Below are positions 2,107 to 41,685 of a stretch of 53,268 nt of DNA, one piece after another. The DNA is from an uncultured Sporosarcina sp. Lineage in GTDB: Bacteria > Bacillota > Bacilli > Bacillales_A > Planococcaceae. A model generated the notes under the pieces. It was not told where the DNA came from and did not search any database. It saw only the letters and a list, made by a program, of their open reading frames with translations. How positions within the stretch are numbered: the first letter of the stretch is position 1; each line of letters starts with the position of its first letter. The DNA is taken from NCBI GenBank assembly GCA_948469885.1, contig CAOKMT010000001.1, positions 150,187 through 203,454 of the forward strand, given 5' to 3'. The translations under genes and the position numbers were made by a program.

Positions 2107-2301
2107 TTTAACTTGATTCAGCAGAAGTCCCCCACTTCGATAAGTGGCGGGATGAATGCTAAAATGCATTTAAAATCAGAGGGAGTTCAAACTCCCTGCT
2201 GATTCAAGTTAAGCCTCCGGCGGATGTCACAGATTTTCAGAGGAGCTTTTCGAGCGAGCTCGAAAAAAATCTGGACGCAATCACGCCGAGGCGCGATTGA
2301 T
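2107..2301 (+). repeat. Composite intergenic repeat, copy R1 (modules A + C)
   Basis: Module A (2110-2210, 101 bp) begins AACTTGATTCAGCAG and ends CTGCTGATTCAAGTT, a 15-bp terminal inverted repeat with one mismatch. Inside are three further arms: CCACTT/AAGTGG, AATGC/GCATT and GGGAGTT/ACTCCC. Module C (about 2212-2300) is a long imperfect hairpin built from GCCTCCGGCG/CGCCGAGGC and CAGATTTT/AAAATCTG. Near-identical sequence recurs at 22020 and 23420, and a diverged minus-strand copy is at 41446. There is no coding potential. This may be a MITE-like element; its function is unknown. Confidence 0.8.
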
Positions 2302-2344: not shown

Positions 2345-2689
2345 TTTCAAGTAATCTATAGAAAACCGGTAGAAAAGGTGACACCCCAACGGGAAAAGTA
2401 ATAGCCGAAGACCCTGTAAGCGCAAGGGGGAAGGCTAAGTGTGCTATGTCCTGTGGAGATGCCTTCCTGATCAACTTCGTGTTGGCTCGAGGCCAAGGCA
2501 GAGTCCGCGAAAAGGGAGCTGTTCTGGCGATTCTCGGTCTCTTAGACAACCCCTTTTAGATTTCGGTACACTTTAATGTTAAAAAACAAGTTTTTATAGC
2601 GGTCTCTTCGTTTCGGAGCAGTCCTTTTATTTGTCATTTGGCAAATCATACTTTAGGGGAGTGCACCGGGTCGAATTTGATTCATTATG
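2345..2689. other. Long gene-free stretch with a detached B module
   Basis: No ORF with an RBS is seen. Bases about 2428-2497 resemble the three-hairpin module B found in repeats R2 and R3: outer stem GAAGGC/GCCTTC, the GTCCTGTGG core, and a last hairpin CAACTTCGTGTTG. Bases 2506-2558 carry a weak long-range pairing, AAAAGGG with CCCCTTTT. The rest (2345-2427 and 2560-2689) shows nothing I can name. Confidence 0.45.
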
Positions 2690-21460: not shown

Positions 21461-21553
21461 GTTTTTGGGAAAAAAGAACAAATGTGATCGAAAAGTGAAA
21501 CCAAAAATAGGAGCTACCGTATAATATAGAGTAGAAAGGGAGGTTTGTTACGT

Positions 21554-22024
21554 ATGTCACGTACAGCGGAAAAAGTATTATCTATTATAAGTGCAGCATT
21601 TACAGCAATTACAATTGTAATGAGCTTTGTCGGATTAGCTTTTTGGAAAAATCTTACATCAGATCCAGCATGGCGCCGAGAAGTGGAAATGGAGTTATTG
21701 GCAGATCCGGAATTTACACCGGGAGATGTAGAGTTTATTTTTTCATTGCTTAACTTTTTCGAAGGGTTCTACTGGTTTATCATTATCGCATTAATTATTA
21801 GCTTTATTTTAACGATTGTTGGAATTGTCAATATTTGGAACAACAAAAAGCCGAAGCTGGCAGGAATTATGTTTATCGTTGCGGGATTGTTCGCAGGAAT
21901 TCTTACATTGACTTCAATTCTTTTGTATATTGCTGGTGTGCTTTGCTTTACAAGGAAACCCCCATTGTCCAATGATCGGGCGTTCACCGAAGAAAATTAC
22001 GACGGTACAATGCGGCCACTTTAA
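21554..22024 (+). CDS. DUF4064-type small integral membrane protein
   Basis: A 156-aa protein with an N-terminal helix (ILSIISAAFTAITIVMSFVG region, residues about 8-32) and three closely spaced helices at about 70-130 (FYWFIIIALIISFILTIVGI; LAGIMFIVAGLFAGILTLTS). A lumenal-type loop with acidic residues lies between. It resembles DUF4064 proteins of unknown role. GGGAGG stands ten bases before the ATG at 21554. The last codons and the TAA stop run into repeat R2 (TTTAACTTG), so the repeat supplies the stop codon and the native C-terminus may have been changed. Confidence 0.65.
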   Translation: MSRTAEKVLSIISAAFTAITIVMSFVGLAFWKNLTSDPAWRREVEMELLADPEFTPGDVEFIFSLLNFFEGFYWFIIIALIISFILTIVGIVNIWNNKKPKLAGIMFIVAGLFAGILTLTSILLYIAGVLCFTRKPPLSNDRAFTEENYDGTMRPL

Positions 22025-22331
22025 CTTGATTCAGCAGAAGTCCTCCACTTCCATAAGTGGCGGGATGAATGCTAAAATGCATTTAAAATCAGAGGGAGTT
22101 CAAACTCCCTGCTGATTCAAGTTCAAAGGAAGGCAACCTAAGTTCGCCACGTCCTGTGGCGACGGTTGCATGACCGACATCCCGTCGGCCCGCGGATGTC
22201 ACAGATTTTCAGAGGAGCTTAAGAAGGCAGTCTAAGACCGCGACTTCCTGTCGCAACGACTGCATGACCAACTTCCTGTTGGCCCCATGCTCGAAAAAAT
22301 CTGGACGCAATCACGCCGAGGCGCGATTGAT
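22020..22331 (+). repeat. Composite intergenic repeat, copy R2 (modules A, B1, C-left, B2, C-right)
   Basis: Module A is at 22023-22123 and is nearly identical to R1. Module B1 (about 22126-22190) folds as GCAACC/GGTTGC enclosing CGCCAC/GTGGCG, then CCGAC/GTCGG. The left half of C (GCGGATGTCACAGATTTTC) follows, then a second, different B module (22223-22285: GCAGTC/GACTGC, GCGAC/GTCGC, CCAAC/GTTGG), then the right half of C ending CGCCGAGGCGCGATTGAT. B2 is thus inserted in the loop of C. Confidence 0.85.
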
Positions 22332-22335
22332 CAAG

Positions 22336-22372
22336 AAAAAGGCGCTTTCCATTTCATGGAAGGCGCCTTTTT
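22336..22372. terminator. Bidirectional terminator after repeat R2
   Basis: A 12-bp stem, GGCGCTTTCCAT / ATGGAAGGCGCC (one G-T pair), has a 3-nt loop, with A5 before and T6 after. It serves the DUF4064 gene and the convergent GNAT gene. Confidence 0.85.
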
Positions 22373-22427
22373 TGAAATAATAATTGGATTCTTCCTCGGG
22401 TAGGTCCGTGGAAGGATAAGCAGGACA

Positions 22428-23419: not shown

Positions 23420-23637
23420 TTTAACTTGATTCAGCAGAAGTCCTCCACTTCCATAAGTGGCGGGATGAAAGCTAAAATGAATTTAAAATCAAAGGGAGTT
23501 CAAACTCCCTGCTGATTCAAGTTCAAAGGAAGGCAACCTAAGTTCGCCACGTCCTGTGGCGACGGTTGCATGACCGACATCCTGTCGGCCCCGAACTCGA
23601 AAAAGTCTGGACGCAATCACGCCGAGGCGCGATTGAT
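23420..23637 (+). repeat. Composite intergenic repeat, copy R3 (modules A, B3, C-right)
   Basis: Module A is at 23423-23523; B3 at about 23526-23592 differs from B1 of R2 essentially in one loop base (ATCCT for ATCCC). The right half of C ends CGCCGAGGCGCGATTGAT. The left half of C is missing. In module A the arm AATGC/GCATT is broken here (AAAGC, GAATT) while the other arms are kept. Confidence 0.85.
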
Positions 23638-41445: not shown

Positions 41446-41637
41446 TATCAATTACGCCTCGGCATGATTGCGTCCGGATTTTTTCGAGCTAGCTTGAAAA
41501 GCTTCCCTTAAAAATCCGTGACATCCACCGGAGGCATCATCTTTGTTCAGCTAGAGGTTGAACACCTGCTGAACAGGAAGCACAACTGCATTCATCTCGC
41601 CACCGTAGAAGTGGGAGTTTTCTGCTGAAGGAAGATA
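41446..41637 (-). repeat. Diverged composite repeat, copy R4 (modules A + C) on the minus strand
   Basis: On the minus strand it starts TTCAGCAGAAAACTCCCACTT, with the hairpin CCACTT(C)...GGTGG and GATGAATGC preserved, followed by TTCAGCAGGTGTTCAACC. Module C then reads GATGCCTCCGGTGGATGTCA ... AAAAAATCCGGACGCAATCA ... GCCGAGGCGTAATTGAT. Compensatory changes are seen in C: CGGATT/AATCCG replaces CAGATT/AATCTG of the other copies. Confidence 0.75.
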
Positions 41638-41685
41638 AACCTATTATACATATTTTCAGCTTGGAATGGGAAGGAGAGGAATTCC

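What the first reader, a model, noticed from the sequence alone, without database searches (positions are those of the whole stretch)
22126..22285. Three-hairpin repeat module (B) with compensatory base changes between copies
Two B modules within R2 share a loop and spacing pattern but differ in their stems in a paired way. Outer stem GCAACC/GGTTGC becomes GCAGTC/GACTGC; inner CGCCAC/GTGGCG becomes GCGAC/GTCGC; last hairpin CCGAC/GTCGG becomes CCAAC/GTTGG. The loops keep (T/C)CCTGT. A further copy (R3, 23526-23592) and a detached one (2428-2497, outer stem GAAGGC/GCCTTC) follow the same plan. Covariation seen directly in the sequence implies selection on, or copying that depends on, an RNA or single-strand DNA fold. 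I know of no named family that matches.
Basis: seen in the sequence. Interest (0 to 1): 0.7.

Follow-up and report, generated by a model that had tools for sequence, protein, structure and literature searches.

The report
Mobile hairpin nested inside structured RNAs
The repeat is a copy of Bacillaceae-1, a catalogued bacterial RNA motif of unknown function, and genome comparison suggests that it is a tiny mobile hairpin that settles in the loops and at the ends of other folded RNAs, including itself.

Summary
Covariation is overwhelming: 15 of 17 pairs change on both sides over 48 aligned copies; 0 of 500 shuffles reach the covariation score.

Comparison points to a small non-autonomous mobile hairpin. 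The home genome has 40 copies over cut-off. Empty and filled sites are visible in the P12 hairpin of one genome's only RNase P RNA, in the 2-nt gap between tRNA-Ile and 5S, and in the UCCU loop of an older B. Of 111 hits in loci outside the home family, 57 lie within 400 nt of tRNA, 5S or 16S genes, 55 in sense; 32 end within 3 nt of a mature 5' end.

In the window three of four copies ride in a composite 'T-element' (no Rfam match) placed between stop codon and terminator. G-U pairs are no commoner than A·C mismatches (18 vs 22), so RNA-level selection alone explains the stems poorly.

How it moves is inferred; an RNA intermediate is my favourite. A 2022 paper on this motif was not readable here.

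The parts
22122..22191 (+). B copy 1 (Bacillaceae-1), at site (i) of composite R2, after the A hairpin
   Evidence: RF01690 69.8 bits at 22122-22188
22216..22285 (+). B copy 2 (Bacillaceae-1), at site (ii), the apical loop of the R2 core hairpin
   Evidence: RF01690 68.7 bits at 22216-22282; empty site in R1
23522..23591 (+). B copy 3 (Bacillaceae-1) in composite R3
   Evidence: RF01690 73.5 bits at 23522-23588
2419..2488 (+). B copy 4, decayed, inside an unrelated host repeat (E2-like, about 2370-2540)
   Evidence: RF01690 38.9 bits at 2419-2485; same host layout in L015
22021..22331 (+). composite R2 (T-element): A hairpin, B1, X, B2, T end hairpin; starts on the stop codon of ORF 21545-22024
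   Evidence: module blastn, sequence, ten orthologous intervals without it
22341..22373 (+). terminator-like hairpin with T run of the upstream gene, downstream of R2
   Evidence: sequence; similar hairpins follow the stop directly in the orthologues (by eye)
23421..23637 (+). composite R3 (T-element): A, B3, T
2108..2301 (+). composite R1: T-element with A, X and T but no B (empty reference)
41447..41640 (-). diverged T-element without B, upstream of a minus-strand start codon

Best explanation
The B module is Bacillaceae-1 (RF01690), and it behaves as a small (about 65 nt) non-autonomous mobile element that acts as a folded single strand. Shown by comparison: it is dispersed, it occurs at sites that are empty in relatives, it sits in hairpin loops, in spacers and at mature ends of structured RNAs and inside other B copies, nearly always in the RNA's sense. 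Loops (RUCCUG) and linkers (AAGGA, CUAAG, AACG) are kept while stems are free as long as they stay Watson-Crick. In this genome it was amplified mostly by riding in a larger structured repeat (the T-element) that sits in mRNA untranslated regions. Inferred: a B-containing RNA is joined to, or copied end-to-end with, another RNA (for instance by reverse-transcriptase template jumping between RNA ends), and the copy recombines into the locus; most insertions that keep the host RNA working are those in loops and spacers.
For: RF01690 match and 43 matches, 40 over cut-off, in this genome. Empty/filled sites: G054's only rnpB (1 match) carries B in the P12 hairpin, G341 and G298 lack it; tRNA-Ile CCA-TA-5S in G428 against CCA-B-5S in G409; in the tRNA-Val/tRNA-Met spacer L357 (G373) has a second B in the UCCU loop of the B that 8 relatives have alone (placed by eye, MAFFT put the gap elsewhere). 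Further nesting by eye in L043, L045, L053 and L371. Orientation: B with the T-element 131 same, 2 opposite; B with the nearest tRNA/5S/16S 55 sense, 2 antisense, both 16S. 32 of 111 hits, in 8 families, end within 3 nt of a mature 5' end: 22 tRNA, 6 5S, 4 16S. 8 of the 39 hits with a sense tRNA within 120 nt upstream are followed, at or within 4 nt of the model end, by a 23-33 nt repeat (at most 1 mismatch) of that tRNA's 3' end from the T-loop on.
Against: No movement was observed, only comparison. Copies are not independent: 8 of the 32 flush cases are orthologues or near-orthologues in one genus. Sense bias and flush ends in tRNA/5S operons could partly reflect survival, since antisense or internal insertions may be lost. 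B lies antisense in some E2 host repeats (L292-L296, L307) and 5' of 16S (L321, L323). 54 of 111 hits have none of the sought RNAs within 400 nt. No enzyme was identified. Rare G-U is unexpected for a purely RNA-level constraint.
Confidence: 0.75

Rival explanations
1. DNA-level copying: replication stalls at hairpins, the nascent strand switches template onto another B copy and back, which inserts B without any enzyme of its own and also rewrites one stem arm from the other.
For: Stems are Watson-Crick with G-U (18) no commoner than A-C (22) in 1824 cells, against 6.7% G-U in 4174 standard tRNA pairs of the fetched loci (Fisher p 1e-25); nested insertions with small losses and no clear target duplication; template switching is proposed to create and maintain RNA hairpins (PMC8794818, passages seen).
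Against: Does not predict the near-absolute sense orientation (131:2, 55:2), because an inverted hairpin folds as well; loops are almost never inverted (AGGAY in 2 of 114 and 3 of 75 rows), although switching inverts loops; loops and linkers are conserved across families.
Confidence: 0.3
2. A classical transposase acting on hairpins in single-stranded DNA (IS200/IS605 or RAYT type) moves B and the T-element in trans.
For: Hairpin ends, no visible target duplication at R2, many small copies.
Against: No PF01797 match in the home genome (88% complete) although it has 40 B copies; same-genus genomes G007, G010, G015, G016, G019 also have none but 8-21 B copies, while G001, G012, G018 have one and no B.
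Confidence: 0.12
3. Not mobile by itself: an old functional RNA (rRNA/tRNA spacer element or sRNA) kept by selection and spread only by riding in other repeats.
For: Rfam lists it as sRNA; it abuts mature 5' ends of stable RNAs in 8 families; compensatory changes also occur at orthologous sites (second hairpin of L337 against L339).
Against: Occurs in unrelated hosts (T-element, E2, E3, rnpB, tRNA spacers, itself) and is absent from the same site in relatives; 59 of 261 genomes of the order show none (strict filters).
Confidence: 0.13
4. CsrA-binding sRNA read from the reverse complement (Gardner and Eldai 2014), which exposes AGGA loops.
For: Reverse-complement loops match the CsrA motif (PMC4333381, passages); some copies 5' of 16S are antisense (L321, L323).
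Against: Sense with tRNA/5S in 47 of 47 nearest-RNA cases and with 8 of 10 16S cases; the motif strand is the RNA strand of rnpB.
Confidence: 0.05

Closest known systems
Bacillaceae-1 RNA, Rfam RF01690 (Weinberg 2010, PMC2864571; table entry seen)
   Same: Sequence and fold over the whole model, all four copies
   Different: Filed as an sRNA of unknown function; here it looks like a mobile hairpin. Rows in composites, rnpB and nested copies were not found described in the passages I could read. [quoted passage not shown] that it reports rRNA-linked copies and reverse-complement expression upstream of 16S is recalled.
Fungal and sponge mitochondrial double-hairpin / repetitive hairpin-forming elements (PMC2800124, passages)
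   Same: Short hairpin units, dispersed, in tandem, inserted in rRNA at length-variable sites without being removed from the transcript
   Different: Organelle, different sequence; here conserved loops, strict sense bias, a whole bacterial order
Rickettsia palindromic elements; repeats in cyanobacterial rnpB (recalled)
   Same: Small palindromic units inside genes, including RNA genes
   Different: Unrelated sequence; those also enter open reading frames; not compared here by sequence
5S rRNA expansion segments (PMC7812874, passages)
   Same: Extra hairpins in stable RNAs that spread between strains
   Different: B sits mostly beside 5S, not inside it; no link to RF01690 made there in the passages seen

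Membership tests
Bacillaceae-1 RNA (RF01690) | Covariance-model score at or above 35 bits | tested here: met
   73.5, 69.8, 68.7, 38.9 bits
Bacillaceae-1 RNA (RF01690) | Two hairpins with RUCCU-type loops | tested here: met
   Alignments; loop counts
Bacillaceae-1 RNA (RF01690) | Association with rRNA operons (recalled) | tested here: inconclusive
   Seen in other families, not around the window copies
Bacillaceae-1 RNA (RF01690) | Independent sRNA transcript | not testable with these tools
   no expression data here
Mobile hairpin elements (mitochondrial DHE/RHE type; works like) | Many dispersed non-coding copies | tested here: met
   63 matches in G014
Mobile hairpin elements (mitochondrial DHE/RHE type; works like) | Sites empty in relatives | tested here: met
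   with 96
Mobile hairpin elements (mitochondrial DHE/RHE type; works like) | Insertion in loops or variable parts of RNA genes | tested here: met
   rnpB P12
Mobile hairpin elements (mitochondrial DHE/RHE type; works like) | Sequence homology to those elements | not tested
   no such comparison was run
IS200/IS605-derived MITE | Y1 transposase available in the genome | tested here: not met
   no PF01797 match in G000, which is 88% complete
CsrA-binding sRNA (reverse complement) | Minus strand is the functional RNA | tested here: inconclusive
   orientation speaks against it; no binding test possible

The most novel reading that the evidence does not exclude
Bacillaceae-1 is a retro-mobile RNA parasite of structured RNAs: its transcript is joined end-to-end to mature or cleaved stable RNAs (3' hairpin to a 5' end, 5' side to a CCA end or an open loop), copied into DNA and recombined in, giving sense, scar-poor, nested insertions in tRNA and rRNA operons, RNase P RNA and itself.
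Probability: 0.3. Interest if true: 0.85.

Novelty: new variant of a known kind. Interest (0 to 1): 0.6.

Why it matters
It would turn a much-annotated 'sRNA of unknown function' into a mobile element, explain why copies scatter over intergenic regions, tRNA and rRNA operons, and provide a bacterial counterpart of mitochondrial hairpin elements with a dense fossil record of insertions. It also gives a natural test of how perfect stems persist: by RNA selection, by DNA folding, or by copying one arm from the other.

Tried and rejected
Y1 transposase as mover: no match in the home genome and no link with copy number. Cargo of plasmids or phages: the R2 composite has no match in either collection at blastn sensitivity. 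A pseudoknot between the conserved 5' AGGA and the UCCU loops: AGGA is missing in a large part of rows whose loops are unchanged, so no support; no formal test was run. CsrA sponge: disfavoured by orientation. B inside 5S rRNA (L200, L218): seen by eye only; Rfam finds no 5S there at E 0.01 and about 14 nt of 5S seem lost, so I do not count it. Other Rfam families for the composite: only sub-threshold matches. A wider stem count on T hairpins failed for lack of parsed rows (2 only). Literature: searches found no paper that calls Bacillaceae-1 mobile; this covers open-licence papers only, and of the 11 papers naming the motif I saw passages of six.

Rows dropped before counts: for the 111-hit set I left out duplicate loci (L213, L380, L382) and added L073, L081, L083, L086; tRNA, 5S, 16S start and 23S start were sought there by ARAGORN and single-sequence nhmmer, not rnpB. 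Loci were fetched because they held B or the T end, so proportions describe these loci, not whole genomes; for 100 of the Planococcaceae loci only and 58 of the others were alignments made. Of 116 T ends, 20 at locus edges and 3 far from genes were set aside. The outermost of 17 pairs was left out of the G-U count.

Full report
What is in the window. The two B modules of the finding are Bacillaceae-1 RNAs (RF01690), as are the R3 copy and the detached copy. Copies 1-3 lie in a larger composite that I call the T-element: an A hairpin (TTAAC..GTTAA stem with inner hairpins), a core that starts GCCTCCGGCGGATGTCAC, a hairpin, and a right end hairpin CAATYRCGCC..GGCGYRATTGAT. R1 (2108-2301) and the minus-strand copy at 41447-41640 are T-elements without B. 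Site (i), after the A stem, and site (ii), the apical loop of the core, hold B in R2; R3 holds one B. The fourth B sits in a different host repeat (E2-like), the same layout as in L015.

Is it more than chance. Yes. Searches (48 copies; 114 copies; 72 distinct copies) give covariation scores of 0.50, 0.50 and 0.66 against shuffle means of 0.17, 0.17 and 0.19, with 0 of 500 shuffles as high each time. Weaker measures were reached by some shuffles (see observation check).

Where it lives. The home genome has 43 matches, 40 over cut-off; RF01690 is matched in 36 of 61 relatives, 202 of 261 genomes of the order in 17 of 19 genera, and 67 of 299 genomes drawn from the class. The window's genus is probably Sporosarcina: G020, of the same genus, has a contig of 489760 bases, the length of a Sporosarcina sp. 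HYO08 record (inference).

It moves, judged by empty and filled sites. (a) G054 has one RNase P RNA match, and it carries B within the P12 hairpin on the same strand, with the rest of the class A model aligned end to end at 268 bits; G341 and G298 of the same family have short P12 tips. (b) In G428 tRNA-Ile and 5S are separated by two bases; in G409 B occupies exactly that gap, from CCA to the 5S start. (c) Eight genomes of one genus have B between tRNA-Val and tRNA-Met; in G373 that B carries another B in its UCCU loop (I placed the junction by eye, since MAFFT split it otherwise). (d) The R2 and R3 composites are absent from ten orthologous intervals: an nhmmer scan of these finds no T end in them (the one clear match lies at the edge of L414, outside the intervals) and one B, in L415, where a different composite was inserted.

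It nests. In this genome B copies interrupt B copies in L043, L045 and L053, and another double hairpin (M) interrupts the B loop in L008, L029, L036, L048, L050, L053, L054 and L058 (by eye). Six of 41 model matches in named genomes are 133-139 nt long for this kind of reason. Nested and tandem B occur in other families (L371, L345).

It is oriented. Of 205 profile pieces in Planococcaceae loci, 131 have a T end within 350 nt downstream in the same orientation, 2 in the opposite one, and 72 none; pieces split by M are counted twice. Of 111 hits in loci of other families, 57 lie within 400 nt of a tRNA, 5S or 16S; the nearest is sense in 55 (42 tRNA, 8 16S, 5 5S) and antisense in 2, both 16S. 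In 32 (22 tRNA, 6 5S, 4 16S; 8 families) the last pair of the 3' hairpin is within 3 nt of the mature 5' end. The T-element itself is biased: 52 sense and 13 antisense between co-directional genes, 18 divergent, 10 convergent, of 93 classed. Exceptions: B is antisense to E2 repeats in L292-L296 and L307.

A second signature. Of 39 hits with a sense tRNA within 120 nt upstream, 8 (in G046, G054, G437, G408, G368) are followed, at or within 4 nt of the model end, by a 23-33 nt repeat (one mismatch allowed) of the 3' end of that tRNA-Asp or tRNA-Lys, starting in the T-loop. It may be a target duplication or a B in the T-loop of a lost second tRNA copy.

RNA or DNA fold. In 114 copies and 16 pairs: 1769 Watson-Crick cells, 18 G-U, 22 A-C, 15 other mismatches. 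In the other families, helices 1 and 2 have 765, 7, 13 and 4. tRNA stems in the fetched loci have 280 G-U among 4174 standard pairs (ARAGORN brackets list standard pairs only, so A-C in tRNA was not measured). Either the stems are read as DNA or on both strands, or one arm is refreshed from the other, as proposed for template switching (PMC8794818, passages). But loops are hardly ever inverted, so the loop sequence in sense is itself constrained.

How it most likely works. Shown: family, fold, dispersal, empty/filled sites, nesting, sense bias, flush ends. Inferred: a B-bearing RNA joined or copied end-to-end with other RNAs and then recombined in. This fits flush junctions to CCA ends and mature 5' ends; survival of harmless insertions can explain part of it. 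No enzyme was found. Y1 transposases are absent from the home genome and do not follow copy number.

What is known. Weinberg 2010 lists the motif; Gardner and Eldai 2014 suggest CsrA binding by the reverse complement and note that the strand was uncertain; BSGatlas lists 8 copies in B. subtilis; a review lists it among abundant sRNAs. Gonzalez-Tortuero 2022 was seen only as a citation; its rRNA link is recalled. So rRNA proximity is not new; mobility, nesting, the rnpB insertion and the composite are not described in what I could read.

Verdict. Known family, new behaviour: a bacterial mobile hairpin comparable in kind to mitochondrial double-hairpin elements. Interest 0.6; mobile-hairpin reading 0.75.

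Noticed in passing
window 2108-2301, 22021-22331, 23421-23637, 41447-41640: T-element: a structured repeat family of Planococcaceae without Rfam match; 42 cores without B align with conserved ends; its 5' GCCUC is complementary to GAGGC in its 3' hairpin (by eye).
   Followed up: partly
T end hairpins in all fetched loci: One inner pair is A-C on the + strand 30 times and G-T never, as if the minus strand formed the wobble; the 30 may stem from few lineages.
   Followed up: no
L048:6033-6309, L053:3110-3450, L123 and others: Module M, a double hairpin (GTGCCTTAATTTC.. and ATCGAACCCTTCGCTGTTCGAT), found inside the B inner loop.
   Followed up: partly
L200, L218, L220: 5S-like sequences with two extra inserts, one of them B, in two families; not called 5S by Rfam.
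   Followed up: partly
L345:1333-1570 (G309): Tandem array of truncated B copies with a 56-nt period beside a gene's terminator.
   Followed up: no
L015, L292-L311: Widespread host repeat E2 (GACTCCTGCGGGA..CCCGCGGAAAGCG) carrying B in either orientation.
   Followed up: no
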